Of a DNA stretch of 51,161 nt, positions 34,479-50,863 are shown piece after piece (within the stretch, counting starts at the first letter, position 1; every line of letters begins with the position of its first letter). Origin of the DNA: Chitinophagales bacterium (GTDB lineage: Bacteria; Bacteroidota; Bacteroidia; Chitinophagales; Saprospiraceae); assembly GCA_026928325.1 (NCBI GenBank), contig JAIXKS010000047.1:63663-114823 (forward strand), in the 5' to 3' direction. A model generated the notes under the pieces. That model was not told the DNA's origin, ran no database searches, and was given only the letters and a program-made list of their open reading frames with translations. The position numbers and the translations under genes were made by a program.

Positions 34479-34628
34479 GGTTTTAGTTTATATGTTGTTA
34501 TTTGGTGAAAATATATCCAAATGGCAAGGAATGAATATCACTTGGCAGATTTTACCGATAAATATGGATGCGAAGATAATATTTTTTTATAAACTCAATT
34601 TAATCGAAGTAATTTGTCTGCTTTGTGT

Positions 34629-34755
34629 TTAACGTTTGTCCAGCTTTGTGGCGGGCGGAATTTTTAGCACTAAGGTTTAATCGAAGCACAAAAGTTGAAT
34701 TTTGCACTTCCGTTGATACGAAGCTGTTCAGCCCGCCTATTGCCAATACGATGTT
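34629..34755 (+). repeat. attC-like palindromic site 1, interrupted by IS copy 1
   Basis: The left arm TAACGTTTGTCCAGC (from 34629) and GGCGGGCGG are followed, about 70 bases later, by GCCCGCCTATTGCCAATACG and GATGTT. After the IS the site resumes with AGCGG at 37229. The arms are imperfectly complementary with TAAC/GTTA ends, as in integron attC sites. Left and central parts align with site 2 (both contain AATTTTTA and AATCGAAG). Confidence 0.65.
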
Positions 34756-34857
34756 CAAGCGACACCTACGGTGAGCGATAGTAGTACCAAAAGGCACTAA
34801 CAATTCACAAAAGATCCCACTTTTACCTTTCATTTATTAACGTTAAAAATAATTATC

Positions 34858-36952: not shown

Positions 36953-37092
36953 CAAAGAAAGAAACAAAACAGATCGGCAAAAGAAAGCAAAACACCTGCA
37001 TTGTGGGTAAGGGCATCTATATGCCTGAAGGAAATCTAAACATTAAAATCGCTACAAAGAAAAGAAAGTTGACCTACAAAAAACCACGGTAA
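36949..37092 (+). CDS. Small basic protein of the IS element, 47 residues, copy 1
   Basis: The frame starts MTKKETKQIGKRKQN and ends KRKLTYKKPR. It overlaps the transposase stop as ATGA, a typical coupled start, and is preserved in both IS copies. The high Lys/Arg content (over a third of residues) suggests nucleic acid binding, perhaps accessory to transposition or regulation. I know no family. Confidence 0.55.
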   Translation: MTKKETKQIGKRKQNTCIVGKGIYMPEGNLNIKIATKKRKLTYKKPR

Positions 37093-37156
37093 GGAGACTA
37101 CAAAAGCTACAAAACCACCTACGTTCTAAAGCTGGTGTCGCTGAACAACGTATAGC

Positions 37157-37195
37157 AAAAAGCCCAGAGACTTCAAAGTTCTGGGCTTTTCTTTT
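37157..37195 (+). terminator. Intrinsic terminator at the IS 3' end, copy 1
   Basis: AAAAGCCCAGA (37157-37167) pairs with TCTGGGCTTTT (37180-37190), followed by C and a T-run. The stem has 11 pairs. It may also act as a subterminal hairpin of the element end. Confidence 0.85.
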
Positions 37196-37282
37196 TTATT
37201 TGGGCTTTCTTCTATACGTCATGATGTTAGCGGTTTGTTGCTTTTTCAGCGTATTAAGCTTATGGAAGATTTCAAATAATGT

Positions 37283-37735
37283 TTATATAATATTTAAAGT
37301 CATCATATATACTAAAAGTGCTGTAATTGCTGTATAAATTAAGCCGCCAAAAATAATATAACCTGTTGTTTTATGGAATTTTGACAGTTTACCAGGAAGA
37401 CTTTTTTGGAATTTAATATTGGAAATTATAATCAGAATTGCCCATAGTAAGTAACTTAGAATTGCTACAATAATATGAGAGTATAAAGTAATTTTAAAGA
37501 ATTTAGTATCATAAAAATTACTTGAAGAAGCTAAGCTGCCAGATCCGCCTTCTGAACGAATTAATCCTTCTAAAGCTAATACTCCGACAACACAAACAAT
37601 AAAAATAATATTTTGGATTTTTCGATGGGCTTTATAATCCTTTTTCTTTGCTATTTTTACTCCATAATAAACCCCAAAAGGAGAAAATAAAGTGAGCAGT
37701 AATACTGCTGTCATAATGGTAATAGTTACATTCAT
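37283..37735 (-). CDS. DUF420-like membrane protein in a cassette position
   Basis: This 150-residue protein has four hydrophobic helices (about 4-24, 43-59, 82-105, 124-147). Histidines at 37, 87 and 121 sit at or near helix ends, a pattern seen in DUF420/YozB and some heme-binding membrane proteins. It could be electron-transfer related, but the function is unproven. The gene lies between attC-like sites 1 and 2, on the minus strand, like the DUF262 gene. Confidence 0.6.
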   Translation of the reverse strand: MNVTITIMTAVLLLTLFSPFGVYYGVKIAKKKDYKAHRKIQNIIFIVCVVGVLALEGLIRSEGGSGSLASSSNFYDTKFFKITLYSHIIVAILSYLLWAILIIISNIKFQKSLPGKLSKFHKTTGYIIFGGLIYTAITALLVYMMTLNII

Positions 37736-37819
37736 TTTTCGTTCTTTAATTTAATTTTTGTTTACTGTTTAAAATATTTGGATTATTGGAAATAATTGTT
37801 TTGGGTTTTGTTTTGCAAT

Positions 37820-37962
37820 AACCGCTAACGTCTGACCAGCTTGCCGAAGTGGCGAATTTTTACCGATAAACTTCAATCGAAGAACGAACTTTCAATTTAT
37901 CTAAAACGTTCAATCGAAGCACTTTACCCGCCATTTTGGCAAACTGGCTGTTATGTGGTCGT
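37820..37962 (+). repeat. attC-like palindromic site 2
   Basis: The left end is ACCGCTAACGTCTGACCAGC, then TTGCCGAAGTGGCG; the right end is CGCCATTTTGGCAAACTGGC, then TGTTATG. The reverse complement of the right arm aligns with the left arm (TAAC, CCAGnTTGCC, GTGGCG versus ATGGCG). This gives an imperfect hairpin with GCTAAC and GTTATG ends. The stop codon of the minus-strand DUF262 gene (TAA, 37951-37953) lies inside the right end, as stop codons often do in integron cassettes. Confidence 0.7.
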
Positions 37963-40026
37963 TGCTCTTTCATCTTCATATTTTATCATCAATTCATCTT
38001 CAAGGTCAAATACCTGTAAAGCCAATTTTATCCTGTCAAATTTTCCAATGTTATCTAAATTCCCTTCAATGTAATAACTGTCATTTATTGGCATAGGCGT
38101 TCTTGGATTTCCTTCTGTTGGATTTTTAGTTAGTGTGAGTTTCTCTGCCAATTCAGAAGTGAAGAATTTTTGCGGTTCTAAATCAAAAAGTTGTCTAATC
38201 ACTTCTTGATACAGTTTAGCAACTTGACGCATTTCTAATTTTTGGTCGAAGAAGATAGCATAATCCAATTTCTTGCCTTTTGGGTCATCTGCTTCAAAGA
38301 TATTTACTTCTTCTCTTGATGCAATGTCTTCAAGGTCAATTTTAGGAATAGCCCAAATTTTTAAAAACCTTTCAGCGATTATATCAAATCTCCTTTTTAC
38401 TTCGGAAGTGTCCCATTTGTCAAGGATTCCAATATATTTATTCAGCCATAAACGACTGTCTTTAAATCCTGAATTTTCCAAATCTCTTTTGTCAGTAAAA
38501 TACTTATTGCTTAGTTTTGAATTATAGCCCGTCAAGGTTAAATTTCCTATTGTGTTTAGATAGTTAGATTTCATTTCGTTGTACTCATCTTGACCTAACT
38601 CTAATTTCCATTTTCCGTCTGGGTTTTGTGGGAAAATATGTTCTATGGTTATATCTGGATTTCCTTCAATTTTTACAGGTTCGTGATTTTGATAGTTTTC
38701 TAAACGCTCTAATAAGTATGTTCTGTTTTTTGAATTGATGTTATAAACGTCTTTAACTTCTAAAGAGTCAATTACTTCTTCATTTCGTGGGAAACGCTGA
38801 ACTCCTGACCTTTGCAACAAGGATTTTTGAATAGAGAATAGATAATTTTCATTATCAACCTTATCATAAAGATTCATAAATATTTTGTTGAGTGCATTGG
38901 TAGGCAATCCTACTATAAATCGTCTCCACGTATAAGTTTGAATAAGTTCTAAAATATTTACAAATGTATCTTTATCAATGGCTTGATTTATGTAATCGTC
39001 ATAGATCCTTATTAAAAATGGATAGGCTACATTTATTTCCAAACGATTGATATATTCCAATTGCTTTCTAATATCCGAATCAGTTTCATTTTTCGGGTTT
39101 ATCAGTTTGTTATAGTGTTTTGCTAAGTTCTTAATTTTATTAAGCGTGGCTTCAAGTTCATCAACTGTTGTGGTTGGGTACTTTTCCTTAAACTCCATAT
39201 AAACTTTGCTCTTATTTGGAATTTTGTTGTTTTCAACGGTTAAGTAATCCCTTATAAATTCTGAAACTCGGCTTTTATTGGAAGATTCGTCTTTCGCATA
39301 TTTTTCTATAACTTCCCAATAATCTTGGTAAATTTTGTTTTGGTCTCTGCGTTTTAAACCCATTAAAATATAATTTCGGATTAAGTCCGCTTGAGTTAGT
39401 TCTAAACCTGTTGAGTTTAAACTTTCAAAAATTCTTTGTGGGTCGTCTTTTTCACGGTCTAATGATACTTCAACAAACATTAACTTTGAAAGCCCTGAAA
39501 GAACTGCTTCAAAATTTTCTTTGATAATTCTTTCTTTAAAATAATTGTAATTATCAATTAATCTCGAAAATCCATTGAATTCTTCCTCTTGATGATTTCG
39601 CAACAAAAATTTTAAGGCTTCATCATTATTTTCAGTAGGGCGTAACTTTAACTTTTCTTCTTCGGGTGCAAATTTATTGATTAAATAAGTTTCGTTTATT
39701 TCGTTTTCAAGAGAAGTATCGCCCATTTTTTTGGCAAGTTGATAAAGCGTTAAATAAATGAGAGTTATAGTTGTAATTCTCTGCTGGCCGTCTATTATAG
39801 TAAGTTCTTTTATGCGTGAAGATGTATAAACGTCATCGTGAACATATACAATACTCCCGATAAAATGGGCATTCATTTTCTTGTTGCTTCCAACTTCAAG
39901 AATGTCGTCTAAAAGTTGTTTACATTGTGCCGTTGTCCAATCGTAATTTCTTTGATAAACAGGGATTACAAATTGGGTTTTATTTGATGATAAAAATTCT
40001 TCTACTTTAGTTTCCGTTGCTTTCAT
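37951..40026 (-). CDS. DUF262-DUF1524 protein, GmrSD-like candidate type IV restriction enzyme
   Basis: This 691-residue protein begins with a DUF262 domain (IPVYQRNYDW at 21-30, IDGQQR at 78-83, the F-x2-LNSTG-x5-DLIRNY block at 200-219). It ends with a DUF1524 HNH-type domain (EHIFPQ at 462-467, GNLTL at 494-498, N502). DUF262 is an NTP-using ParB-like module. The pair forms GmrSD-like nucleases that cut modified phage DNA. The C-terminal 120 residues are an additional domain I do not recognise. It sits between two IS copies and attC-like sites, with a promoter repeat upstream. Defence is the likely role. Confidence 0.85.
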   Translation of the reverse strand: MKATETKVEEFLSSNKTQFVIPVYQRNYDWTTAQCKQLLDDILEVGSNKKMNAHFIGSIVYVHDDVYTSSRIKELTIIDGQQRITTITLIYLTLYQLAKKMGDTSLENEINETYLINKFAPEEEKLKLRPTENNDEALKFLLRNHQEEEFNGFSRLIDNYNYFKERIIKENFEAVLSGLSKLMFVEVSLDREKDDPQRIFESLNSTGLELTQADLIRNYILMGLKRRDQNKIYQDYWEVIEKYAKDESSNKSRVSEFIRDYLTVENNKIPNKSKVYMEFKEKYPTTTVDELEATLNKIKNLAKHYNKLINPKNETDSDIRKQLEYINRLEINVAYPFLIRIYDDYINQAIDKDTFVNILELIQTYTWRRFIVGLPTNALNKIFMNLYDKVDNENYLFSIQKSLLQRSGVQRFPRNEEVIDSLEVKDVYNINSKNRTYLLERLENYQNHEPVKIEGNPDITIEHIFPQNPDGKWKLELGQDEYNEMKSNYLNTIGNLTLTGYNSKLSNKYFTDKRDLENSGFKDSRLWLNKYIGILDKWDTSEVKRRFDIIAERFLKIWAIPKIDLEDIASREEVNIFEADDPKGKKLDYAIFFDQKLEMRQVAKLYQEVIRQLFDLEPQKFFTSELAEKLTLTKNPTEGNPRTPMPINDSYYIEGNLDNIGKFDRIKLALQVFDLEDELMIKYEDERATTT

Positions 40027-40072
40027 TTAATCGTTTTATTTTATTTGTAGCGGTTTTCTTGCAATGCCACAT

Positions 40073-40210
40073 AACTCACAAATATACGAAGGTTTCACAA
40101 ATGCCAAAATTTTTTATTCCATTGTTTTTCAATATAATAACTTTTTTTATTAACTTGAGATATTTATAATACGAAGCTATGAAGATATTCAAAATGCGAA
40201 GTTAGGTTTA
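40073..40210 (-). repeat. 138-bp promoter-bearing repeat, copy A
   Basis: This segment reappears at 45205-45342 with about eight differences and no gaps. Read on the minus strand it contains TTTTG, 18 bases, then TATATTTG, a Bacteroidota-type promoter directed at the DUF262 gene 46 bases away. The two copies lie upstream of different minus-strand defence candidates. Confidence 0.85.
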
Positions 40211-40213
40211 TTT

Positions 40214-40239
40214 CCTGCCGTTTTTGCCAAACTGATGTT
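40214..40239 (+). repeat. attC-like arm 3, target of IS copy 2
   Basis: CCTGCCGTTTTTGCCAAACT, then GATGTT, closely resembles the right arm of site 1 (CCGCCTATTGCCAATACG, then GATGTT) and site 2. The IS begins within this hexamer. The left arm of the site is not obvious; a GTAGCGG...CCACATAAC segment at 40048-40075 may belong to it. Confidence 0.55.
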
Positions 40240-40341
40240 CAAGCGACACCTACGGTGAGCGATAGTAGTACCAAAAGGCACTAACAATTCACAAAAGATC
40301 CCACTTTTACCTTTCATTTATTAACGTTAAAAATAATTATC

Positions 40342-41244
40342 ATGCAAGGTAACACAATTTCATCAAATGTGCTCAATGAAAGCGGAAAAAATTGGATTGA
40401 GCGGAGTTTTCGGGTATTAAAAGTGCAGGAATATGGCAAGGGAAGCGTCCGTAATTACATACAGGAACTGACATTGCTGTTTAAATTTTACAACGATATG
40501 CAGGTTGAGGAACTACGCCAGGAGCATATCGAACAGTATCTGTTGTTTATCAAAGAGCACCATAAGGTAGGTCGTGCCAAATGCCGCAGTGTGGCACAGG
40601 CATGCAGTTTTTTCTTCAAAAAGGTAATGCCTGTGACTTATGTAGTACCCAGCAATCTGTATCCCAAAAAGCAGTTTCAGTTGCCCGATATTATGACAGA
40701 GGATCAGGTGTTGCAACTGTTTAAAGCGGAGTTGACGCTGAAGGAGCGATGTGTGGTAGGCTTGCTGTATGGTACGGGTATGCGCATCAGTGAAGTGTGC
40801 AACATGAGAATCAGGGATATCGACAGTGCCAATAAGCGAATCAAAGTAGTACAAGGCAAAGGCGGCAAAGACAGGTTTACCTTACTTCCGCAGACGTTGC
40901 TGACAGATCTTCGGGCGTATTATGTGGCAGCAGGTCGTCCAGAAGAGTATTTGTTTACGAGTACGCAAACCCGTCGTGCGGTTCATGTACGGAGCATGCA
41001 GGTAGTAGTGAACGGAGCGATGCAGAAAGCAGGCTTTGAAAGCGGACGGTTTACGGCACATACGCTACGCCACAGCTTTGCTACCCACATGCTCAATCAG
41101 GGTAACAATATCCACGTGATCAAAACCTTACTTGGTCATAGTAAGTTGGAAACGACGATGATATATCTCCACTTACAGCATCATACACAGTTGGGCATAG
41201 TATCGCCAATGGAAAAACTGAGCAGTGGAACAAGCACAGATTAA
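40342..41244 (+). CDS. Tyrosine recombinase of the IS element, copy 2
   Basis: The 300-residue product is identical to that of copy 1, with all catalytic residues (R148, H240, R243, H266, Y275). The lack of divergence points to a recent duplication or gene conversion between the two elements. Confidence 0.93.
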   Translation: MQGNTISSNVLNESGKNWIERSFRVLKVQEYGKGSVRNYIQELTLLFKFYNDMQVEELRQEHIEQYLLFIKEHHKVGRAKCRSVAQACSFFFKKVMPVTYVVPSNLYPKKQFQLPDIMTEDQVLQLFKAELTLKERCVVGLLYGTGMRISEVCNMRIRDIDSANKRIKVVQGKGGKDRFTLLPQTLLTDLRAYYVAAGRPEEYLFTSTQTRRAVHVRSMQVVVNGAMQKAGFESGRFTAHTLRHSFATHMLNQGNNIHVIKTLLGHSKLETTMIYLHLQHHTQLGIVSPMEKLSSGTSTD

Positions 41245-42436
41245 GCAGTTATTACAGCGAAAAATCTTTGATCATCCATCCACTAAACAATTCAATCCAT
41301 ACAGCCAAAAAGTACTGAGGCGACTGTCAGATTGCCACACGGCGCGCATAGGCAAACACGTCTATGGATGTAGTCATTGCGATCACGTACATCATCAGTA
41401 TCATAGCTGTGGCAATCGGCATTGTCCGAATTGCGGCGGACTCAGGCGGGAACAATGGTTGCAGGATAGACACAGTGAACTGCTGCCGACGACGTACTTC
41501 CATTTGGTATTTACGCTTCCGGCGGAACTGCGAAGTTTGGTCATGGGCAATCGAAAAGTATTGTTTGGCTTGCTATTTGAAGCCGGTACTTATACGCTGA
41601 GAAAGCTGGGTAATGACGGAAAATATTTAGGAGGTACACCAGGCATCATCAGTATATTGCATACGAATGGACAGGATCTGACCTTTCATCCGCATGTGCA
41701 TAGTATCGTGACAGGCGGCGGATTGGACAAGGAGGGCTTATGGAAGAAAGAAAAGCGAAAATGCGGCAATTTTCTGTTTCCGAGGCGAGCGATGGAAAAG
41801 ATATTCAAGGGATATTTTCTGGACAGAGTACAACAATTAAAAAAGTCAGGCGCTCTAAAAGTCAAAGACGAGGACCAGCACAAGATCATGTTAGAAACGG
41901 TCCGTTACAAGAAGTGGAATGTGTATGCCAAAGCGCCATTTGGCGGACCAGAGCAGGTGTTGGAATATTTAGGTAGATATACGCACAAAGTAGCGATCAG
42001 CACGCATCGAATCAAAGAGATAACAGCAGAAACAATCACATTTCGGTACAAGGATTATCAGGACGGGCATAAGCAAAAAGAGATGACGCTGAGCCATGAG
42101 GAATTTTTGCGAAGGTTTGAGCAACACATCTTACCGAGAGGATTTGTAAAGATACGGCACAGTGGATTTTTGAGTCATCAGCACAAGGGCGCACGCATCA
42201 AAAGTATCTGCGAACAGTTGGCAATAGCACCACCACCTCGCAAGGTAAAGCTACCTGTACAGATATTGGCAGCGATGACGTATGGTGTGGATATCACGCT
42301 GTGCAGCGTATGTAATATCGGCAAATTGGAGCGCATAGCCACGTATGTGAATGTGTCGAAAACAGGCGTTGAATTGGTAAATATCGAAAATATGAGAAAC
42401 CGAGGATCTCCTCAAAAAATACCAATACTAAAATGA
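41225..42436 (+). CDS. IS91-like HUH transposase, copy 2
   Basis: The 403-residue product is identical to that of copy 1, including the zinc cysteines, HPHVH (155-159) and YLGRY (248-252). It starts at GTG inside the recombinase gene. Confidence 0.95.
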   Translation: MEQAQIKQLLQRKIFDHPSTKQFNPYSQKVLRRLSDCHTARIGKHVYGCSHCDHVHHQYHSCGNRHCPNCGGLRREQWLQDRHSELLPTTYFHLVFTLPAELRSLVMGNRKVLFGLLFEAGTYTLRKLGNDGKYLGGTPGIISILHTNGQDLTFHPHVHSIVTGGGLDKEGLWKKEKRKCGNFLFPRRAMEKIFKGYFLDRVQQLKKSGALKVKDEDQHKIMLETVRYKKWNVYAKAPFGGPEQVLEYLGRYTHKVAISTHRIKEITAETITFRYKDYQDGHKQKEMTLSHEEFLRRFEQHILPRGFVKIRHSGFLSHQHKGARIKSICEQLAIAPPPRKVKLPVQILAAMTYGVDITLCSVCNIGKLERIATYVNVSKTGVELVNIENMRNRGSPQKIPILK

Positions 42437-42576
42437 CAAAGAAAGAAACAAAACAGATCGGCAAAAGAAAGCAAAACACCTGCATTGTGGGTAAGGGCAT
42501 CTATATGCCTGAAGGAAATCTAAACATTAAAATCGCTACAAAGAAAAGAAAGTTGACCTACAAAAAACCACGGTAA
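42433..42576 (+). CDS. Small basic protein of the IS element, 47 residues, copy 2
   Basis: It has the same ATGA-coupled frame as in copy 1 and the same Lys/Arg-rich product. Preservation in two copies does not prove selection because the copies are recent. Confidence 0.5.
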   Translation: MTKKETKQIGKRKQNTCIVGKGIYMPEGNLNIKIATKKRKLTYKKPR

Positions 42577-42640
42577 GGAGACTACAAAAGCTACAAAACC
42601 ACCTACGTTCTAAAGCTGGTGTCGCTGAACAACGTATAGC

Positions 42641-42679
42641 AAAAAGCCCAGAGACTTCAAAGTTCTGGGCTTTTCTTTT
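42641..42679 (+). terminator. Intrinsic terminator at the IS 3' end, copy 2
   Basis: The hairpin is the same as at 37157 (AAAAGCCCAGA with TCTGGGCTTTT and a T-run), shifted by 5,484 bases. Confidence 0.85.
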
Positions 42680-42780
42680 TTATTTGGGCTTTCTTCTATA
42701 CGTCATGATGTTGAACAAAACCTCCGGTAGCCTTCCGCACTAATCCGTAAATTTGCCATTCAATTTTAAAAATATTAGTT

Positions 42781-43141
42781 ATGGCAACAAAAAAATCGTC
42801 GGAAGCATTAAGAACCAGCAAGTACCTTAATCGTGCCTGCGACAAAGTTACAGGATTTTCAGAATTATTAGTGCTCTGTCCACAAAAAAATCTTAATGAA
42901 ATGTCGTTCTTTTTTCAAATCTCATCGTTAAAAATACTCGCCATAGTTACCACTATGCCTGTGTTTTCGCCTTGATCTTTAAAAAAACAACTTCCATTAT
43001 TATTTAAGTCTTTTTATAGACAGAGCACTAGCAAGGTTCAGACGAAATATTTCAATTCTTGGGTGCAGCAAGCGGAAATTTGATAATTACAGTCGTCATG
43101 TTGCAGTTGTGGATCGTTTGCAATCAAACCAAGGAAAATAG
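42781..43141 (+). pseudogene. Tyrosine recombinase N-terminal remnant interrupted by a MITE
   Basis: Removing the MITE and one TA restores an open frame: MATKKSSEALRTSKYLNRAC, DKVTGFSELL, then ARFRRNISILGCSKRKFDNY, SRHVAVV. The last part resembles the SAM-like DNA-binding domain of IS-associated tyrosine recombinases. After about residue 55 similarity ends and a TAG follows (43139-43141). The catalytic domain is absent. A -7-like box TAAATTTG (42748-42755) precedes it. This is a relic of another mobile element, different from the recombinase of the flanking IS. Confidence 0.7.
42871..43028 (+). repeat. MITE copy R4, complete, with TA target duplication
   Basis: The 158-bp element GTGCTCTGTCCAC...GACAGAGCAC is flanked by TA at 42869-42870 and 43029-43030. 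It has the CATAGT-TACC-ACTATG hairpin. Because the host frame is known on both sides, this copy proves TA duplication: deleting element plus one TA restores codons for E-L-L-A-R-F. Confidence 0.93.
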
Positions 43142-43263
43142 GAAGAATACGGTAATACAGCCTATTTGCTTCTACATCTAAGAAAGAAGCTCGGGATTTC
43201 GCCTATTACTTATCCATAAAAACAAATCGATAAACCCATAAGGGAGACTATGTAGCCGGTTTC

Positions 43264-43320
43264 GTTCAACAGCGGTTTCATGGCTTGCACTTCGTGCGCC
43301 ACGAAACCTTAGTTATTGGC
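43264..43320 (-). repeat. attC-like hairpin site 4
   Basis: GGTTTCATGGC (43274-43284) pairs imperfectly with GCCACGAAACC (43298-43308); GCAC-TTC-GTGC forms the inner loop. Outside lie GTTCAAC and GTTATTGGC ends. On the minus strand the site begins about 25 bases after the nuclease gene stop and its far end reads GTTGAAC, matching GTTRRRY. It resembles a short attC. Confidence 0.6.
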
Positions 43321-43343
43321 AACTGGTGTTTGTTTTATCTCGT

Positions 43344-43847
43344 TTATTTGATTTTAATTTCTGCTTGCACGTCAAGTCTGAAACCATTTGTCCTTTCAAA
43401 AAAGGCTTTTCTTTCTGCTGTGTCAATTACTGTAAAATTTGGGTGCTTTCTGTTACACGCAAAAGCTTTTTTATAGCGAAAATTATAAAGGTCGTGATTT
43501 TCTGAAATTAACTTTATCGTGTTTTCTAATTGTCCCTTTGCATAGGAAATCCAACCGCCTGTGCTTTGTTTTTTCAACTCCACTAAATACAAACTTTCAG
43601 TAAAAGTTAACATGCCGTCACAAGAACTTTCTTTTTCCTTTGTTCCTGCTTTATAAACGATTGTGCAATTGTCTATGGCTGTAAATGAGATGTCAATTTT
43701 ATCGTCATTTGTAACTTTTGCAATCCATTTTGTATCATCTGCTGTGTCTGTGTATGCTTTTGTTCCGTTTTGGTCATCACATACTCCAAACTGCCTTTCG
43801 TTTCTTGAAGATTCTTTACAGTTTGTTTCAAAAAAGTTCACACTCAT
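43344..43847 (-). CDS. PD-(D/E)XK nuclease-like protein, partner of an ABC-type ATPase
   Basis: This 167-residue protein shows a likely PD-(D/E)XK core: D77 in SSCDGMLTF, then E90-L-K92 in LYLVELKKQ, then a helix with GQLENTI (about 105-111). There is no signal peptide. It starts inside the stop of the ATPase gene (ATGA overlap), so the two are made together. By analogy with other ATPase-nuclease pairs, the ATPase would sense phage and the nuclease cut DNA or RNA. The nuclease call is based on motif spacing and is inference. An attC-like site follows the stop. Confidence 0.6.
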   Translation of the reverse strand: MSVNFFETNCKESSRNERQFGVCDDQNGTKAYTDTADDTKWIAKVTNDDKIDISFTAIDNCTIVYKAGTKEKESSCDGMLTFTESLYLVELKKQSTGGWISYAKGQLENTIKLISENHDLYNFRYKKAFACNRKHPNFTVIDTAERKAFFERTNGFRLDVQAEIKIK

Positions 43848-45091
43848 AATTCTTGCTCAATTTCAAGTAAAGAATCAAAAAGCAAGTTGCTTTCCGCTAA
43901 TGTTTTGTTTAGGAAATTTTTGTCGGAAGGTATTCCGTCAATAGTTTCTAATTTTTTAATGCTCCCATCTTTTTCGTCTAACTGATATACAACTACATTG
44001 TTAGCAGAAACCAATGAATCTTTTGGAACGAATTGATACAATTTGGTCAATAAAATATCTCTATTTGATGATTTTCTGATTTTATTATCCAAATATTCGG
44101 CTTGAATGGCAATGCTTAAATAATTGATAATATACGGACTGTGTGTCGTCAAAATTAGTTTGTTGCCTTTGTTCATTGCATTACATTTCAATAAACTTTG
44201 TAACATTTGCCATTGCGAAGTTGGGAAAAGATTTTGTTCGGGTTCTTCTACAATATTTATGAAAGCTGTCTTATTGAATTTTGCTGAAAGAACGGACAAG
44301 GCAACTCTTTTTTGTTCGTCAGTTAAGTTGTTGTTGTTCCAAATTTCTTCAACACCTTTTTTGAAACGTTGCATTTCATCACTGCTCATCGTTTCTTTGT
44401 TTGTTTCACTTTGTTTTTTTACAGATTTAGACAAATAACTAGAAACTAAATATAACGGAACAAGAGATTGAAAACCGCTTGATGCTTCGGTTAATTTCAC
44501 TTTGTAGCCTTCTCCTTTTAGGTTCAAAGTGTCATTCAGTTTGTCGTATTCTACACCAACATTATTTATAGGTAGATTTTCCAAACCTTTCATTTCATTT
44601 TTTGCGTTATCAAACTCTGTCAGAAATTCCTTTAACGAATCAGATGAAAGTTTTAATTCCTTTGGCGTTTTAACGTAAGCAATAAAATTTCTTTCGGCAG
44701 GCACATACATAATTTGTGGAAGTGGGTACTCCTTGTTATGCACTTCGCTGATTGTCAAAGAGCCATTTTCATAAACAATAGAAAACGCATCTCCTTCATA
44801 TTCAAGCACAGTTTTATCAACTCCATTTATTCTGAAGTAATTTTCAAGGCGATGATAGTTTAGATATTGGTTTTTAAGTTTGTTTTTTCGCTCAAACCAT
44901 TTTTTATTGTAATCGCCTCTGACAAGAGCTTTTTCAATCCATGTAAAAGTAGAAATTAATTTTGCGACTGTGCTTTTACCCGCACCTTGATTGCCGATAA
45001 AAACAGTAACCTTTTTTATGTCAATCCAACCGTCATTGCTTGAAAAGCCTTCTTTGATTGGTCCAAAATTCTTTATTCTGATTCTGCTCAT
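43844..45091 (-). CDS. ABC-type AAA ATPase (AAA_15/OLD-like), candidate defence sensor
   Basis: This 415-residue protein has Walker A GNQGAGKST (33-41), an ABC signature-like TEASSGFQSL (201-210), Walker B INIVEEPEQNLFP (278-290) and H-loop LTTHSPYIIN (314-323). The insert between A and signature (about 60-200) lacks long coiled coils, so it is not a full SMC. Such ATPases pair with nuclease or toprim partners in systems such as PARIS, Septu and Gabija, but the partner here is a small PD-(D/E)XK protein. A CGAATTTA box at 45112-45119 and a 138-bp promoter repeat lie upstream. Confidence 0.85.
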   Translation of the reverse strand: MSRIRIKNFGPIKEGFSSNDGWIDIKKVTVFIGNQGAGKSTVAKLISTFTWIEKALVRGDYNKKWFERKNKLKNQYLNYHRLENYFRINGVDKTVLEYEGDAFSIVYENGSLTISEVHNKEYPLPQIMYVPAERNFIAYVKTPKELKLSSDSLKEFLTEFDNAKNEMKGLENLPINNVGVEYDKLNDTLNLKGEGYKVKLTEASSGFQSLVPLYLVSSYLSKSVKKQSETNKETMSSDEMQRFKKGVEEIWNNNNLTDEQKRVALSVLSAKFNKTAFINIVEEPEQNLFPTSQWQMLQSLLKCNAMNKGNKLILTTHSPYIINYLSIAIQAEYLDNKIRKSSNRDILLTKLYQFVPKDSLVSANNVVVYQLDEKDGSIKKLETIDGIPSDKNFLNKTLAESNLLFDSLLEIEQEL

Positions 45092-45204
45092 TTTTTTAAA
45101 CGTGTATGGTGCGAATTTACAATTTTATATCCAATTATTTTGCTATAAGAGAGTAAATTATTGTAAGTCGATTCTGTCGTGGCGTATCGTGTACACTTGC
45201 TTCC

Positions 45205-45342
45205 AACTCACAAATATACGAAGGTTTCACAAATGCCAAAATTTTTTATTCCACTGTTTTTCAATATAATAATTTTTTTTATTAACTTGAGATATTTATA
45301 ATACGAAGCTAGGAAGATATTTAAAATATTATGTTAGGTTTA
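45205..45342 (-). repeat. 138-bp promoter-bearing repeat, copy B
   Basis: It is about 94 percent identical by eye to 40073-40210, ungapped. The TTTTG-18-TATATTTG promoter is unchanged and points towards the ATPase-nuclease operon, 113 bases away. The differences cluster at the far end (45325-45335). Confidence 0.85.
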
Positions 45343-45607
45343 ATTCCAAATTTTATAGATTCTTACTTGTACGTCACTATAAAAAGGTGATTTGAATCCA
45401 TGTTCATCCTGCTTAACGAATGAGGCATTTTTGCCAATCCATATCGATACCGCGATAATACTTTTTTATCGAAAAAGTAGATGTAAAAGAATTAGCGAGT
45501 ATAGTGGAAGGATGGTTCTTGATAGTTTTATACCCACCTCGAGGCAAAACCATCTTCATGATTAAACAACTATTTTTTATATGACTTATTGGACGTATTG
45601 AATTTTT

Positions 45608-45955
45608 TTAGAAGCCTAATTGCTGTTTTTGAGTCCATAAAATTATAAATACAAGAAGTGAGCACAAAGTTCCGAACGGAAGATACCACAAGGTGAGCAA
45701 GGCATTGATAAGCCCAAAATTATAAGTCCAACTTGAGTTCGTCCACAGTCCATAAAGCCAAACGAGCCAAAGCAGCCCGAAAATGATAAAAAGTGGACCG
45801 AGTTTAAAAACATCGATACTTAACTTCTCCAATAAGATCGCCCAAGGTCCTGGTTTTTCGGGACCGATATACTTTCCTTGAAGCATCACATAAATCCCGT
45901 CTATAAGCATATATCCACCGTTTAAAAGCCCGAGTATGGTCAAAAGTATTTTCAT
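45608..45955 (-). CDS. Uncharacterised membrane protein, 115 residues
   Basis: Four hydrophobic helices are visible (about 3-22, 50-70, 78-92, 95-110). Tryptophan is frequent. No family is recognised. It is 39 bases downstream of the EreA/ChaN-like gene on the same strand and may be co-transcribed. Confidence 0.5.
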   Translation of the reverse strand: MKILLTILGLLNGGYMLIDGIYVMLQGKYIGPEKPGPWAILLEKLSIDVFKLGPLFIIFGLLWLVWLYGLWTNSSWTYNFGLINALLTLWYLPFGTLCSLLVFIILWTQKQQLGF

Positions 45956-45994
45956 TTTGTATGGATTTTTTGTTGAATCGAACTACTTTTTCTG

Positions 45995-47161
45995 TTATTT
46001 AACCTCAATCTCGTATTTATCAATAATGTTGTATTTTTTATTTTTTATGACAATCGTATAGCTTCCTTTTGTCAAGTAAAGTTCATTCGGTATATGGTTA
46101 TCGGTAATCTCTATAATATCCGCTGGTATTCCATCATTATCAAATTCATTCATTCTGTACGCCAAAATGATCAAAGATTCGTTGTTTTTAATTTTAGATG
46201 GAGGTATGGTATATCCCTTCTTCCCATCTATAAGCCAATTAGGGCGATTATTAACGTATGTTGTAGGCGGATGTATAACGACTATATCTGTTTGATTTAT
46301 ATTCCCATTAAATACTTGTTCATTTTCATTGATCAATACAATCGGTTCATTTGTATTGTTGAGTTCGATAAATAGGTGGTTATTTTCGCTATTCGATCTT
46401 TCTAAAAACATAGTTTGGTCGATGGTTAAAGGATCTATTTTCATATACTCTTTTAACCTGCCTGCCATTGCTTTTTCCCACGCAGGATAGTCGTTTTCGT
46501 AGGCATGTGCAAAGCCACAGTGAATAAGAACTTTTCCGGCAGGGACACTTTCGATGAATTTTTGAATATTTTGGGCTTGTTCGATTTCCCGCTCTTTACC
46601 GTTTTTATTACTAGAAACTTCATAGCCAAAAAGGGTAAAACCAATGTCTAAAGCCTCCGAAAGTAAATTGCCGAATTCGGGTTCTTTGGTATAATAGCCG
46701 CTTTCTATTATGGGATATTTTCTTACATTGATGGTGCTGTCAAATAATGCTTCAAGTCCAAGATATCGGTAGCCATTGGCATATAATTCTTTCAAAAGGG
46801 ATTTTGTGAATATGCGATGTTTGGGCATGTGATGCGCTTCGTTAATGATTACGATTTGCGCGTTTTTCGATTGCTTTATGATATAATCCTTGGCATTGAC
46901 TTTTTTACTATTCATAAAAAATAAGCTGTCTTGCTCCGTAGTTTTGGGTTTTCTAACACCGTTTTTGTCCCAAATTTGAAGGACTTCTCGATAATAACCT
47001 GAAAAAGACAACGCCGTAGCACCTATCTGATATTTCCAAGGTACAGTATCTTTATCAATTTGAGATAAAATATCTTCAGAAAATCTATACAATTCGGAAT
47101 CGGATTGCCCAATTGCGATAAAAGTGTATAAACAAAAAACTATGGTGATTGCTCTATTCAT
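45995..47161 (-). CDS. Secreted EreA/ChaN-like (TraB-type fold) protein
   Basis: This 388-residue protein has a signal peptide (about 1-18). The segment VIINEAHHMPKHRIF near residue 105 and LIHCGFAHAYEND near 215 resemble the histidine/glutamate motifs of the erythromycin esterase/ChaN/TraB superfamily (E and H ligands on both). A C-terminal beta domain (about 290-388) is not recognised. A periplasmic hydrolase or heme-binding role is possible; substrate unknown. An attC-like arm lies upstream. Confidence 0.55.
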   Translation of the reverse strand: MNRAITIVFCLYTFIAIGQSDSELYRFSEDILSQIDKDTVPWKYQIGATALSFSGYYREVLQIWDKNGVRKPKTTEQDSLFFMNSKKVNAKDYIIKQSKNAQIVIINEAHHMPKHRIFTKSLLKELYANGYRYLGLEALFDSTINVRKYPIIESGYYTKEPEFGNLLSEALDIGFTLFGYEVSSNKNGKEREIEQAQNIQKFIESVPAGKVLIHCGFAHAYENDYPAWEKAMAGRLKEYMKIDPLTIDQTMFLERSNSENNHLFIELNNTNEPIVLINENEQVFNGNINQTDIVVIHPPTTYVNNRPNWLIDGKKGYTIPPSKIKNNESLIILAYRMNEFDNDGIPADIIEITDNHIPNELYLTKGSYTIVIKNKKYNIIDKYEIEVK

Positions 47162-47244
47162 GGGTTTACTAGGTTTTTACCACTAAACTTCTTGTATGGT
47201 GGACACGACAAATTTACGAAGATTTTTGAAATCAAAGTCGTTTC

Positions 47245-47272
47245 GTGCCACTTTGCCAATGAGCTATTATAA
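47245..47272 (+). repeat. attC-like arm 5 upstream of the EreA/ChaN-like gene
   Basis: GTGCCACTTTGCCAATGAGC, then TATTATA, resembles the right arm of sites 1-3 (GCC, TTTGCCAA, GnnGTTAT). Only one arm is visible, so this may be a degenerate remnant. A TAAATTTG box on the minus strand lies 84 bases closer to the gene end of the interval. Confidence 0.4.
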
Positions 47273-47438
47273 GTTCTTTGCCATTTGCTGTCTGTGTCGG
47301 GTTGTGTATTGGTCAAAAAAATGAAAAGGAAGAAATATCAAAATTTGGAGTGGTATAGACGAGCTATTTACGTATTTTTTGTAAGTTTTTTGCGTTTGCC
47401 AATATTTGTAATGTACTTAACGGTGAGTGGGATTGTTA

Positions 47439-48484
47439 TTAGAACTTGTCCGATATTTTCATTGCCGAAATAACCGCACCCTCCATATATCCTGCAAATG
47501 CTGTGGCGGTTTCTGTTCCCGAAAAATACAGCTTCCCGTTTAGATAGCTTTGCTGTAACAGCGGGTGTCCGTTGTTCTGGTGTGGTCTTTGGATAATTTG
47601 ATTCCCTGCCAAAACAAATTCATCTGTCCAAACTTTATCGGAATAGGAAACCGGGTTCAAAATCTCTTTTCCCAAAAGTTCCGCTAATTGTCGCAGCACA
47701 AATTCTTTTCTTACTTCCTGAGAATAAGCCGACGCACCGCCACTAAGGAAACCGGTAAAACCAAATTTGTTTTCTTCAAAATTGGTGTGGTCGTACATTT
47801 CCATAATAATTCCTGCGTGACTGTACAGCATTCCCGAATAGCCGTTGTTCCGCCAAAAAGGTGCTGCATATTCCAATACAAATTTCAATGCACCCGACAT
47901 CCACGTTTGAACGGTTGGCAGAATTTGGGTCAGATTATCAGGCAAATCGGGTGAGAATTTTATCTGTAAACCTGCCAATTGTGGTGGTATGCAAATGATT
48001 GCTTTATCTGCTTTGAAGTTGCTGCCGTTTGAAGTTTCTACTGATAATTCGTTTTCAACTTCTTTTAGGGCGGTAATTTTTGTGTTCAGCTTTATGTTTT
48101 CAGGAGACAATTTTTTAGCCAAAGTATCAATCAACATTTGTGTTCCTCCCGCCAATCGGTACGATGGGTTTTCGGCTTCCGGAACAAAGAATTTTTGAGG
48201 GGTTCAAATGATTTGGTTTGAAATAAGGATATGCCTTTTGAAAACTGCGGATATTTCTGCAAGCCCAATTCGTCAATCAAAGCCAGCAAATTCGGATGCA
48301 TATCCGAAAACCAGGTGGCACCCAATTCCATAGGTGTTTCCAAATTCCCTTTTATGGTTTGTATTCTTCCGCCCAATCTGTCAGAAGCTTCCAAGATGGT
48401 CGCTTTTATATTTCTTTTCGACAACAGATAAGCTAACGTAAGCCCACTTAAACCGCCGCCAATAATGATAATTCTTTCGTTCAT
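47439..48484 (-). pseudogene. Flavin monoamine oxidase, frameshifted
   Basis: The N-terminal part (MNERIIIIGGGLSGLTLAYL, FAD-binding) and the C-terminal part (AGGTQMLIDTLAKKL to FSGTETATAFAGYMEGAV) lie in different frames. They join near 48190-48205, where a one-base change in a C4 or A5 run would restore ...KFFVPEAENPSYRLAGGTQM. The restored protein is about 350 residues with all FAD motifs. The family oxidises amines or related substrates. A sequencing error in the homopolymer is possible; otherwise the gene is dead. Confidence 0.8.
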
Positions 48485-48556
48485 TTAATTGATTTTTTGT
48501 AAACACAAAAAGCCGTCGTGATTTTTGACAGCTTGTTATTCTTCTTAAAATATTGA

Positions 48557-48844
48557 TTAAGCCACCGAATAAATCCGTACATCGGGGTTATCCTGCAAAT
48601 AAGGTTTTAAAGCTACCACAACATCATTGTTGAACAACTCACTCGAAAGATAATTTTTGGCATCTTCTACACTTTCAAAACCGTGTAAAACCTGCACATC
48701 TTCGTCTCTGATTAAAAGTTCTTTGGATGTTGCTCCTTTGATTGTTTCTAAAAACGGTGTTTTGTATTTTGCATAAACACCACCTGCATTTGCCCTGTCT
48801 GCATCATTGATTTTCAGACTGATTTCTAAATATGCTTTTGCCAT
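48557..48844 (-). CDS. Small dimeric alpha/beta-barrel-like protein
   Basis: This 95-residue protein has the pattern beta-helix-beta-beta-helix-beta of dimeric alpha-beta barrels such as DUF1330 or ABM proteins (LEISLKIND, then LLIRDEDVQVLHGFESVEDAKNYL). Relatives act as heme, quinone or polyketide-modifying enzymes, but the active site is not clear here. It is 72 bases upstream of the amine oxidase gene on the same strand, so they probably formed one operon. Confidence 0.6.
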   Translation of the reverse strand: MAKAYLEISLKINDADRANAGGVYAKYKTPFLETIKGATSKELLIRDEDVQVLHGFESVEDAKNYLSSELFNNDVVVALKPYLQDNPDVRIYSVA

Positions 48845-49064
48845 TTTATTAGATTTTTAATTGTTTAAAATTGATACTGCAAAGATCTGTATTACAGCAA
48901 TTATAGGAAATGGACAAAAACGAAAATGAATGGTAATTTTAGGAAACGGACTTTGATTATTCCGAATTCGATACAATTAAAATTGACAGAAGCCAATAAA
49001 TGCAATTTGGAAATCAAAGTTTTTATATCTTTTTTGTAAATTCGCCCTTACAGATTGATGTAAA

Positions 49065-49968
49065 ATGGCAAAAAACAAAACAATACAAGTTGAGGGCAGA
49101 GAGATTGTAATTATTACTCAACAACAAGACGACTATATTTCGCTTACCGATATTGCGAAACATAAAAATGAAGAAGCCACAGGCTTGGTTATTTCGCATT
49201 GGTTGAGTACCCGATATACCGTTGAATTTATGGGCTTATGGGAGCAAATTCACAACCCGAATTTTAATGTTACTGAATTCCGTAACATTAAAAATGAAGC
49301 TGGGAGCAATGGTTATGTTCTATCATCAAAACAGTGGATTGGCAAAACCAATGCTATTGGAATTATATCAAAAACAGGCAGATATGGCGGTGGAACTTTT
49401 GCTCATAGAGATATAGCTTTTGAATTTGCCTCTTGGATTTCAGCAAGTTTCAAATTGTATCTAATCAAAGAATTTCAACGTTTAAAAGAAGAAGAAACGG
49501 ACCGCTTGAAATTAGAGTGGAATTTACAACGGACATTAGCCAAAGTAAATTATCACATTCACACTGATGCAATCAAAGAAAATCTGATACCCAAAGAAAT
49601 TACCAAACAACAGGCAAGTTTTGTTTATGCCAACGAAGCAGATTTGTTAAATGTGGCACTTTTCGGTATTACAGTCAAGGAATGGCGAGATAAAAATCAA
49701 GACAAAACGGGAAACATCAGAGATTATGCAACTTTGGAACAATTAGTTGTTTTGAGCAATATGGAACATTTTCGATAAGCGAGTGCAGAGTCAAAATAGT
49801 TTTTGAACTATGCCGAGCGAAGAAAATGAAGGCCATCGCCAAAGTATCAATGCTTTACTTATCCGACAAGGTTTAACACAAACCGAACGGCTGACACAAC
49901 TCAATAAAGTTGCTATAACACAAATGAAATCTTTGCTTGAAAGCAATGCCATCAAGAAGTTGAAATAA
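49065..49968 (+). pseudogene. KilA-N domain protein split by a 76-bp insertion
   Basis: Residues 1-234 carry a KilA-N DNA-binding domain (ISLTDIAKHKNEEATGLVIS, WIGKTNAIGIISKTG, GGTFAHRDIAFEFASWISASF). The frame then ends early (stop at 49776-49778). The missing tail SINALLIRQGLTQTERLTQL, NKVAITQMKSLLESNAIKKL is present at 49843-49968 in another frame. Removing 49767-49842 joins NME directly to SINALL. KilA-N proteins are phage- or island-associated regulators. The C-terminal tail overlaps the end of the convergent AraC gene by 17 bases. Confidence 0.75.
49767..49842. repeat. 76-bp palindromic insertion in the KilA-N gene
   Basis: The segment has CATTTTC near its start and GAAAATG near its end, and a perfect inner hairpin ATAGTT-TTTG-AACTAT (49796-49811). 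It is 76 bases, so it shifts the frame, and it brings an ATG (49810) that could restart translation of a 52-residue tail. No target duplication is obvious. Origin unknown; a small REP- or MITE-like unit is likely. Confidence 0.65.
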
Positions 49969-50863
49969 TAACCTTCCTAAACTCCGAAGGAGAAATTTCA
50001 GTATGCTTTTTGAAATACTTTACAAAGTAAGAAGGGTCGTCAAAACCCAAACGATAACCAATTTGATTTACATTCAAATCGGAATGAAGCAATAAACGCT
50101 GGGCTTCCAAAATAATACGCTCCTGTATCATAAGCGAAGGTGTTTTGTTCAACAGCTGATTCGTAAGGTCTGATAAGGTTCTTGTCGAAACTAACAATAA
50201 ACGGGCATATTCAGAAACAGAAAATCCTTTGCTGTAATTTTCATCAATCAGATTGATAAATTTAATGAGTTGTATTCTCTTTTCGTCCAACACAAACGGA
50301 AGGTTGTTTTGTGTCTTTTCGCAGGATTGCTTTATGCGTTGTATTTGGATTAAAAAAGATTTTAGATAAGCCCGCAATAACTCTTCTTTTCCAAATTCAT
50401 CCGCATTTTCAAACTCTCTCTCTATTTGTAAAATATATTCGTTCAAAATGGCTTCGGTTTCTTTTCCGACAGTGCAATGTGGCTGCTGATAAGGGTTATT
50501 GAACAAATTACATTTCAGGAAAAAGTCTGTTTCGCTTTCTTTTTGTACTAAAAACGCTTCATTAAAATGCAATAAAACACCCTCGTAATCGGTATTGTTA
50601 TCGAAATAATGTACTTGGTTTTTTGCAATGAAAAACACAGTATTATCAGAAATGTTATATTCCTTGAAATCCACAAAGTGCTTTCCATTTCCCTTTCTGA
50701 ACCAAACAATCTGATAATAGCTGTGAATATGCGGTTTGGTAGTTTCACCCTGATTTTTCGCTACATAACCATTCAGGTCGTGAATGGCAAACTGGGGCTT
50801 ATCCGGCTGATGTCTGTTTAAGTGATATTCATTGATGATATTTTCCGTTGCCTTATTGTTCAT
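49952..50863 (-). CDS. AraC family transcriptional regulator
   Basis: This 303-residue protein has an N-terminal cupin-like ligand domain (about 20-120, with KPHIHSYYQIVWFRKGNGKH) and a C-terminal double helix-turn-helix (about 205-300). The second helix-turn-helix has the signature GYRLGFDDPSYFVKYFKKHTEISPSEFRK. Such proteins activate nearby catabolic genes on small-molecule binding. The amine oxidase and dimeric-barrel genes lie on the same strand beyond the KilA-N gene and are plausible targets. Confidence 0.9.
   Translation of the reverse strand: MNNKATENIINEYHLNRHQPDKPQFAIHDLNGYVAKNQGETTKPHIHSYYQIVWFRKGNGKHFVDFKEYNISDNTVFFIAKNQVHYFDNNTDYEGVLLHFNEAFLVQKESETDFFLKCNLFNNPYQQPHCTVGKETEAILNEYILQIEREFENADEFGKEELLRAYLKSFLIQIQRIKQSCEKTQNNLPFVLDEKRIQLIKFINLIDENYSKGFSVSEYARLLLVSTRTLSDLTNQLLNKTPSLMIQERIILEAQRLLLHSDLNVNQIGYRLGFDDPSYFVKYFKKHTEISPSEFRKVIISTS

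What the first reader, a model, noticed from the sequence alone, without database searches (positions are those of the whole stretch)
43344..45091. Two-gene ABC-type ATPase plus small PD-(D/E)XK nuclease operon: candidate undescribed defence system
The genes overlap by ATGA and are co-directional. The ATPase has intact Walker A, signature-like, Walker B and H-loop motifs. The partner has D77...E90-x-K92, a PD-(D/E)XK-like pattern, in only 167 residues. I do not recognise this pairing as PARIS (toprim partner), Septu (HNH partner) or Gabija (helicase partner). The location in a cassette-like region beside a GmrSD-like gene supports defence.
Basis: partly seen in the sequence, partly recalled or inferred. 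Interest (0 to 1): 0.75.

Follow-up and report, generated by a model that had tools for sequence, protein, structure and literature searches.

The report
Two-gene ATPase–nuclease phage-defence candidate
Two joined bacterial genes encode an energy-using switch protein and a small, probably nucleic-acid-cutting enzyme that likely stop virus infection by harming the infected cell; the pair is already catalogued as an untested candidate, and a similar pair has been tested by others, so it is a good but not unprecedented find.

Summary
On the minus strand a 415-aa OLD/PtuA-like ABC ATPase (43844-45091) overlaps by ATGA a 167-aa protein (43344-43847). 'Undescribed' is not: both match full length PADLOC's candidate PDC-M29 (A, E 4.9e-195; B, E 2.9e-62). 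The PD-(D/E)XK reading, weak from one sequence (16,443 of 20,000 shuffles hold the pattern), holds across the family: E90, K92, Q106 in 33 of 33 rows (window plus 32 homologues), D77 in 32, with three invariant cysteines. AlphaFold2 (pLDDT 90.7) places them as that fold needs, but no fold match is significant. All 33 loci found through the nuclease have ATPase sequence directly upstream, 29 with a 4-nt overlap. Closest tested analogue: WonAB, an OLD-ABC ATPase plus PD-(D/E)xK nuclease causing abortive infection by translation arrest. Most likely mechanism: the ATPase senses infection and licenses the nuclease to cut a host RNA. Extras: an attI-like integron site precedes both this operon and the neighbouring GmrSD cassette; HsdR lies downstream in 5 of 33 loci; Microcystis phage Mic1 carries the ATPase alone, beside a gene annotated RNA ligase.

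The parts
43844..45091 (-). ATPase gene, 415 aa, PDC-M29A; OLD/PtuA-like ABC ATPase
   Evidence: ORF; PADLOC PDLC04562 E 4.9e-195 over 1-414 of 415 (this model is unspecific, ringing in 8 of 14 control genomes at E up to 0.001); Pfam AAA_15 2.1e-16; AF2 pLDDT 89.2; Foldseek best PDB match Septu PtuA E 1.2e-9; profile search of PDB sequences, best match a retron Ec78 PtuA chain E 6.7e-5
43344..43847 (-). small nuclease gene, 167 aa, PDC-M29B; D77, E90-x-K92, Q106 plus C10, C61, C76
   Evidence: ORF; PADLOC PDLC04563 E 2.9e-62 full length (0 of 14 controls at E up to 1e-5); conservation in 33 rows; AF2 pLDDT 90.7
43844..43847 (-). ATGA stop/start overlap of the two genes
   Evidence: the same 4-nt overlap in 29 of 33 homologous loci
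45205..45347 (-). upstream repeat (attI-like site; promoter-like end by a recalled Bacteroidota consensus; sharp boundary at GAGTT), also in front of GmrSD; similarity to the contig-C39 copy runs to 45394
43116..43321 (-). segment just behind the nuclease gene, 89% identical to the segment behind a gene pair on contig C39
40073..40215 (-). second copy of the attI-like repeat, in front of the GmrSD gene
   Evidence: 94% identical to 45205-45347
37951..40026 (-). GmrSD-type type IV restriction gene in an integron-like cassette (neighbouring defence gene)
   Evidence: Pfam GmrSD_N 4e-39, GmrSD_C 1.3e-25; cassette ends match
37823..37958 (-). attC-like hairpin at the 3' end of the GmrSD cassette
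   Evidence: 9-nt R'' complementary to the cassette 5' boundary, overlapping the stop codon (in 5 of 500 shuffles); a 180-nt stretch folds at -23.1 kcal/mol with DNA parameters, no shuffle control

Best explanation
PDC-M29 is a two-component abortive-infection system. The ATPase (A) is an OLD/PtuA-like ABC ATPase that dimerises through ATP and acts as infection sensor and as licensor of the small protein (B). B is a divergent PD-(D/E)XK nuclease with active site D77, E90, K92 and Q106, its amount tied to A by translational coupling. On infection A changes state and B cuts an essential host nucleic acid, most likely tRNA or rRNA, stopping translation before phages mature. Shown here: the two genes, their motifs, their linkage, their conservation as a unit. 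Inferred: nuclease fold, complex, dimerisation, trigger, RNA target, defence.
For: Full-length matches to both PDC-M29 models. Active-site residues are among the few positions kept down to about 20% identity. In the model D77 directly precedes strand 78-82, E90 and K92 end strand 85-92 and Q106 lies in helix 99-117. The ATPase's nearest solved structures are Septu and retron PtuA, which work with a nuclease partner. Pairing 33 of 33 loci (in L063 only a C-terminal ATPase piece), 4-nt overlap 29 of 33; distance matrices of A and B correlate, 32 rows, r 0.79, 0 of 5000 permutations as high (shared ancestry contributes). WonAB, with the same parts, needs both active sites, is toxic through WonB in a WonA-dependent way, spares genomic DNA and stops translation (PMC12137116, passages). 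PtuAB of retron-Eco7 depletes tRNA-Tyr (PMC11555353, passages). HsdR downstream in 5 of 33 loci.
Against: No Foldseek match for B with E below 0.058 in the PDB or 1.4e-3 in BFVD; among the listed rows the query-normalised TM-score is at most 0.36. No Pfam model above cut-off and no NCBIfam hit for B; a profile search of PDB sequences gave nothing below E 0.53. The PDC-M29A model is unspecific (8 of 14 control genomes), so the ATPase alone does not identify the system. I found no experiment on this family. The RNA target is by analogy only: Septu PtuAB of another E. coli strain is reported to attack DNA (cited in PMC11555353). Homology to WonA/WonB was not tested at sequence level.
Confidence: 0.68

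Rival explanations
1. B is a DNA nuclease that A loads onto phage DNA, so the pair restricts phage genomes directly instead of shutting off translation.
For: PD-(D/E)XK enzymes cut DNA in most known cases (recalled); Septu PtuAB of E. coli ATCC 25922 is described as attacking nicked DNA (cited in PMC11555353); Rad50 is among the ATPase's structural matches.
Against: The tested two-gene analogue WonAB leaves genomic DNA intact and stops translation. Foldseek rows for B include RNA-cutting relatives (arenavirus endonucleases) as well as DNA enzymes, none significant.
Confidence: 0.25
2. The pair is a guard of type I restriction: it stays silent until a phage anti-restriction protein blocks the R-M enzyme, as PARIS does with Ocr (passage) and PrrC does (recalled).
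For: A type I HsdR gene lies downstream on the same strand in 5 of 33 loci (L049, L050, L052, L053, L058), with a full HsdS upstream in L049, L053 and L058 and an HsdS fragment at the edge of L050. The hsdS-hsdR gap is a proposed hotspot for defence genes, e.g. DarTG2 (PMC12255303, passages). AriA, the PARIS ATPase, is the next PADLOC family of the ATPase.
Against: 28 of 33 loci gave no HsdR hit to the three query proteins at E up to 1e-10 (a divergent HsdR or one beyond the fetched flank would be missed), and none is seen near the window copy. Four of the five are Chlorobiaceae, so they may be one event. The site may only reflect defence clustering.
Confidence: 0.2
3. The pair is a plain toxin-antitoxin module (Pfam calls AAA_21 'putative AbiEii toxin'), B or A being the toxin, with no infection sensing.
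For: Small translationally coupled pair; patchy distribution (4 of 60 relatives and 27 of 395 genomes of the phylum, own genome included in both).
Against: No AbiEi-like partner; the AAA_21 name is generic. In WonAB the ATPase is needed for toxicity and so is not a simple antitoxin.
Confidence: 0.08
4. A repair or recombination pair of the Rad50-Mre11 type, unrelated to phages.
For: Rad50 among structural matches of the ATPase.
Against: Accessory distribution, no match in 9 other genomes of the genus, some of them incomplete; BLASTN finds no similar flank beside the 97% identical copy; neighbours are R-M or other defence candidates in part of the loci.
Confidence: 0.04

Closest known systems
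PDC-M29 (PADLOC-DB 2.0.0 phage defence candidate)
   Same: Both proteins match the two models full length and are adjacent.
   Different: Nothing found; this is a member. The entry carries no mechanism, and its name gave 0 papers.
WonAB (WASA-1 prophage, Nat Microbiol 2025, PMC12137116)
   Same: ABC/OLD ATPase and a small PD-(D/E)xK nuclease; the paper places it in a larger uncharacterised family of ABC-ATPase sensors with nuclease effectors (passages). WonB is modelled on the C-terminal extensions of WonA; about 95 residues follow the H-loop here, equivalence untested.
   Different: Catalytic lysine at 71 in WonB, 92 here; sequence homology not tested; three conserved cysteines here, not mentioned in the passages I saw.
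OLD-ABC ATPase + Novel REase (Krishnan et al. 2020; also BREX survey PMC12839542)
   Same: In silico class of the same composition (passages of citing papers).
   Different: Krishnan et al. not held, so whether PDC-M29 is among its examples is unknown.
Septu (PtuA/PtuB) and retron I-A effectors
   Same: Closest solved ATPase fold; ATPase plus nuclease genes.
   Different: Partner is PD-(D/E)XK-like, not HNH.
PARIS (AriA/AriB)
   Same: AriA is the second-best PADLOC family of the ATPase (2.1e-19).
   Different: Partner shows no match to a Toprim nuclease.
PD-T4-4, HEC-02, PDC-M02
   Same: Candidate systems whose models weakly touch these proteins or distant relatives.
   Different: Window nuclease hits only PDC-M29B models at E up to 1.

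Membership tests
PDC-M29 | PDC-M29A protein | tested here: met
   E 4.9e-195, 1-414 of 415 aa
PDC-M29 | PDC-M29B protein next to it | tested here: met
   E 2.9e-62, full length, 4-nt overlap
WonAB / OLD-ABC ATPase + PD-(D/E)XK | ABC ATPase motifs (Walker A, signature, Walker B, H-loop) | tested here: met
   invariant columns in 33 rows
WonAB / OLD-ABC ATPase + PD-(D/E)XK | small PD-(D/E)XK nuclease encoded beside the ATPase | tested here: inconclusive
   conserved D/E-x-K/Q and topology fit; no significant fold or family match
WonAB / OLD-ABC ATPase + PD-(D/E)XK | sequence homology to WonA and WonB | not tested
   their sequences were not fetched; no PADLOC 2.0.0 hit bore that name
WonAB / OLD-ABC ATPase + PD-(D/E)XK | abortive infection, nuclease-dependent toxicity | not testable with these tools
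   needs bench work
Septu | PtuA-like ATPase | tested here: met
   best PDB matches by fold and by profile
Septu | HNH nuclease PtuB | tested here: not met
   no HNH or PtuB model at E up to 1; conserved residues are D, E, K, Q
PARIS | Toprim nuclease AriB partner | tested here: not met
   partner matches only PDC-M29B
Gabija | Toprim fused to the ATPase and GajB helicase gene | tested here: not met
   415-aa ATPase without Toprim family hit; partner is not a helicase
Integron gene cassette (GmrSD neighbour) | attI-like site, sharp 5' boundary and attC whose R'' complements it | tested here: met
   9-nt complement at the stop codon and hairpin
Integron gene cassette (PDC-M29 itself) | 5' attI-like boundary | tested here: met
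Integron gene cassette (PDC-M29 itself) | attC with R'' complementary to the 5' boundary | tested here: not met
   longest complement 7 nt, at chance (126 of 500 shuffles)

The most novel reading that the evidence does not exclude
Phages have captured the sensor half of this system as a shield. Microcystis phage Mic1 encodes a full-length PDC-M29A-like ATPase (412 aa, 47% identical; Walker A, signature and H-loop kept, Walker B EEIEQN as in L055) while the PDC-M29B model finds nothing in its 92.6-kb record, and the gene lies directly behind one annotated RNA ligase. The orphan ATPase would titrate or mis-assemble the host nuclease, and the ligase would repair the cut RNA, which would also show that the target is RNA.
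Probability: 0.2. Interest if true: 0.7.

Novelty: new member of a known kind. Interest (0 to 1): 0.42.

Why it matters
It moves an anonymous catalogue entry to a concrete, testable prediction: catalytic residues, pairing, family breadth (loci from Bacteroidota and Chlorobi, plus four gammaproteobacterial or spirochaete contigs) and a tested analogue. It adds support to the view that PtuA/OLD-type ATPases are a common sensor chassis onto which different nucleases (HNH, Toprim, PD-(D/E)XK) are mounted. The phage-borne orphan ATPase and the integron setting offer direct handles on counter-defence and on how such pairs move.

Tried and rejected
Relatives of the nuclease in IMG/VR (2 pattern matches, none confirmed) and INPHARED phages: none; in plasmids one, Persicobacter CP012867.1. 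Rfam on 34000-50000 at gathering scores: none. Promoter and terminator scans near chance (13 against 11.2 expected, 1 against 1.8; sigma-70 type only). Idea that the 162-nt inverted repeat at 42868-43031 is the cassette's attC: rejected, its core motif occurs 449 times in the genome (up to 3 mismatches, both orientations, many contigs among the places listed) against 0-1 for the reversed control, so it is a dispersed repeat. Idea that PDC-M29 here is an intact integron cassette: not shown, its attC was not found. Type IV toxin-antitoxin reading from the AAA_21 name: rejected. Literature: 'PDC-M29' gives 0 papers; other term searches (listings only unless a paper is named). Rows dropped: L059 (partial nuclease ORF) left out of alignment A4, L063 (only a C-terminal ATPase piece) left out of A5, C68 left out of the boundary test because runs of N follow its copies; of 15 distinct distant nuclease matches were opened for an ATPase (L005/L009, L033/L039 and L034 were not); the phage row H3 (4.7-kb record, 27% identity) was opened but its partner gene was not examined. 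Limits: only up to 14 first-look candidates per genome were scored, so absence of the repeat from relatives is provisional; one search shows 25 of 243 families.

Full report
Observation. The two genes are as described: minus strand, ATPase 43844-45091 (415 aa) and a small protein 43344-43847 (167 aa), overlapping by ATGA. ARAGORN finds no tRNA in the window. On one sequence the nuclease pattern means little: 16,443 of 20,000 shuffles contain D-x(8-20)-[DE]-x-K. The test that counts is conservation.

What the databases say. PADLOC-DB 2.0.0 matches both proteins full length to PDC-M29A (E 4.9e-195) and PDC-M29B (E 2.9e-62). Pfam sees AAA_15/AAA_21 in the ATPase and nothing above cut-off in the small protein. 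NCBIfam has no model above its cut-off for either, and PHROGs only families of unknown function for the ATPase, apart from a weak ABC-transporter row. 'PDC-M29' occurs in no paper of the held library.

Family and conservation. The PDC-M29B model finds 4 of 60 relatives (own genome included, none of the other 9 of the genus) at E up to 0.001 and 27 of 395 genomes of the phylum (own included) at E up to 1e-5, with 0 of 14 controls in both; at E up to 10 it rings in 2 of 14 controls. The PDC-M29A model is far less specific: 8 of 14 controls at E up to 0.001. A scan of genome contigs with an alignment of the small protein gave 33 loci (44 stretches matched, 33 confirmed), from Bacteroidota and Chlorobi plus one Pseudomonas, one Marinospirillum, one other gammaproteobacterial and one Spirochaetales contig. 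In 33 of 33 an ATPase homologue lies directly upstream on the same strand (in L063 only a C-terminal piece, in L059 the nuclease ORF is partial); the overlap is exactly 4 nt in 29 of 33. Because only the small protein was used to find them, the pairing is not built in. Over 33 aligned rows (window plus 32 homologues) C10, D59, C61, C76, E90, K92 and Q106 are invariant and D77 is 32 of 33. Of 15 distinct distant matches I opened 12 (L006, L007, L010, L011, L028-L032, L035-L037); each has an ATPase gene directly upstream (the ATPase in L030 and the small ORF in L006 are split), and the same residues persist: of 25 rows in a wider alignment, E90, K92, C10 and C76 25, Q106, D59 and C61 24, D77 23. 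Some distant members touch nuclease models weakly (HSDR_N_2 0.011, NERD 0.021, HEC-02B 0.0013; earlier alignment scan).

Structure. The small protein folds with pLDDT 90.7, pTM 0.88 from 33 sequences: strands 78-82 and 85-92, helix 99-117, strand 125-132. D77, E90/K92 and Q106 thus fall at the places of the PD-(D/E)XK motifs (the topology rule is recalled). Against this, Foldseek gives no match under E 0.058 in the PDB; 25 of the 50 rows listed are, by my own recalled classification, chains of a handful of PD-(D/E)XK-fold nucleases or kin (Can2/Cdn1, arenavirus endonucleases, BspD6I, EcoT38I, SfsA), among unrelated folds. BFVD's best is 1.4e-3, an uncharacterised protein. I therefore call the fold probable. 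The ATPase (pLDDT 89.2) matches Septu PtuA best (E 1.2e-9, TM about 0.42), then retron PtuA chains and Rad50; a profile search of PDB sequences agrees (retron Ec78 PtuA 6.7e-5). By PADLOC models AriA comes second (2.1e-19), NsnB and PDC-M56A near 3e-14, GajA and PtuA near 3e-11.

Unit of inheritance. Against the nearest relative (L041, a Bacteroidetes MAG) the BLASTN alignment is 96.9% over 1752 nt, from 2 nt before the ATPase start to 2 nt after the nuclease stop, with no further hit in the flanks. A and B distances correlate (32 rows, r 0.79, 0 of 5000 permutations). The operon moves as a unit. The host family is probably that of G024, whose contig C175 has the length and match position of a Saprospiraceae MAG contig (L064; inference).

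Neighbourhood elsewhere. Of 120 flanking proteins of the 33 loci, 5 match mad3, 4 each type I R and S subunit models and 4 the candidate PDC-S05 (25 of 243 families shown; Pfam, where many neighbours are ordinary metabolic genes). HsdR lies downstream on the same strand in 5 of 33 loci, with full HsdS upstream in three of them. The hsdS-hsdR gap is a proposed hotspot: DarTG2 in EPEC, and an ATPase gene with a putative RNA-binding gene in four genomes (PMC12255303, passages).

How it most likely works. The nearest tested system is WonAB (PMC12137116; passages read): an ABC/OLD ATPase and a PD-(D/E)xK nuclease; variants of either site lose protection; excess WonB is toxic only with an active WonA; genomic DNA stays intact and translation stops, so the authors suggest rRNA or tRNA as target, and they regard it as part of a larger uncharacterised family. 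PMC12409358 (passages) links it to 'OLD-ABC ATPase + Novel REase' of Krishnan et al. 2020, which is not held. The BREX survey PMC12839542 (passages) reports OLD-ABC ATPases with HNH, PD-(D/E)XK and PIN partners. The OLD review PMC10568477 (passages) covers single OLD proteins, Gabija and retrons. PtuAB of retron-Eco7 depletes tRNA-Tyr (PMC11555353, passages), and a Septu system cleaves tRNA-Tyr (PMC13096335, abstract and outline). From this I infer an ATPase-licensed nuclease that cuts host RNA after infection. Shown: genes, motifs, linkage, conservation. Inferred: fold, complex, trigger, target.

Window context. The GmrSD gene (37951-40026) and the PDC-M29 operon are each preceded, in the same orientation, by the same 143-nt sequence (94% identical). 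It has seven further matches in this genome, five of them near full length; in 59 relatives only a 23-nt hit appeared, with at most 14 candidates scored per genome. All aligned copies end sharply at TTTGYGAGTT (C70 reads GTGTT) and are followed by different sequences (runs of N at C68) and different genes. On contig C39 the copy lies between a divergent 361-aa tyrosine recombinase and a gene, the layout of an integron platform. In 5 of 7 testable copies (GmrSD, C60, C49, C39, C70) the 5' boundary reappears as a 9-10 nt reverse complement at or within about 40 nt behind a stop codon further along the cassette (in 1 to 11 of 500 shuffles each), as R''/R' of an attC would; not for C36 and not for PDC-M29. 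PDC-M29's 3' flank instead shares 206 nt (89%) with the flank behind a gene pair on C39 that looks by eye like a methyltransferase and a restriction enzyme. So GmrSD looks like a real integron-type cassette; PDC-M29 has the 5' half of that evidence only. The recombinase has Phage_integrase and SAM-like domains; whether it has the extra IntI domain was not tested.

Phage copy. tblastn of the ATPase against phages finds two records; the better is Microcystis phage Mic1 (47% identity over 98%). Its gene follows one annotated RNA ligase and is followed by a DNA adenine methylase on the other strand; no further ORF of 60 aa or more lies between, and the PDC-M29B model finds nothing in the whole record at E up to 10. 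A more divergent partner elsewhere in the phage is not excluded. An orphan sensor in a phage could be a decoy; that is the boldest reading and is untested.

Verdict. Real, well conserved, very probably a defence-type ATPase-nuclease pair; a member of a catalogued candidate and of a kind with a tested example. Not undescribed in kind.

Noticed in passing
L129 (Microcystis phage Mic1 MN013189.1) 1501-2739: Phage carries a full-length PDC-M29A-like ATPase without a recognisable nuclease partner, behind a gene annotated RNA ligase.
   Followed up: partly
window 40073-40215 and 45205-45347; L076-L082, L123: attI-like repeat with a promoter-like end in front of seven different accessory genes or operons of this genome (an eighth, weak copy on C36); recombinase platform on contig C39 and attC-like ends there and elsewhere.
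   Followed up: partly
window 42868-43031 and 449 motif hits genome-wide: Abundant dispersed palindromic repeat (TTGTGGACAGAGCACTAG core) in both orientations; among the places listed at least seven same-strand pairs lie 160-162 nt apart; a MITE-like family.
   Followed up: partly
window 34858-36952 and 40342-42436: Two direct copies of an IS91-like element (tyrosine recombinase plus Y2 transposase) flank the GmrSD cassette; domains were scanned for the second copy only.
   Followed up: partly
window 49065-49778: KilA-N protein matching PADLOC candidate PDC-S22 (E 2.5e-119), a second defence candidate about 4 kb away.
   Followed up: no
PDC-M29B residues C10, C61, C76: Three cysteines as conserved as the catalytic residues, possibly a metal site or redox switch; unexplained.
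   Followed up: partly
window 47439-48484: Two overlapping ORFs in different frames look like one split flavin oxidase gene (name by eye).
   Followed up: no
L123 5296-7468: A gene that looks like a cytosine methyltransferase and a 359-aa likely restriction gene lie behind the C39 recombinase platform (names by eye).
   Followed up: no
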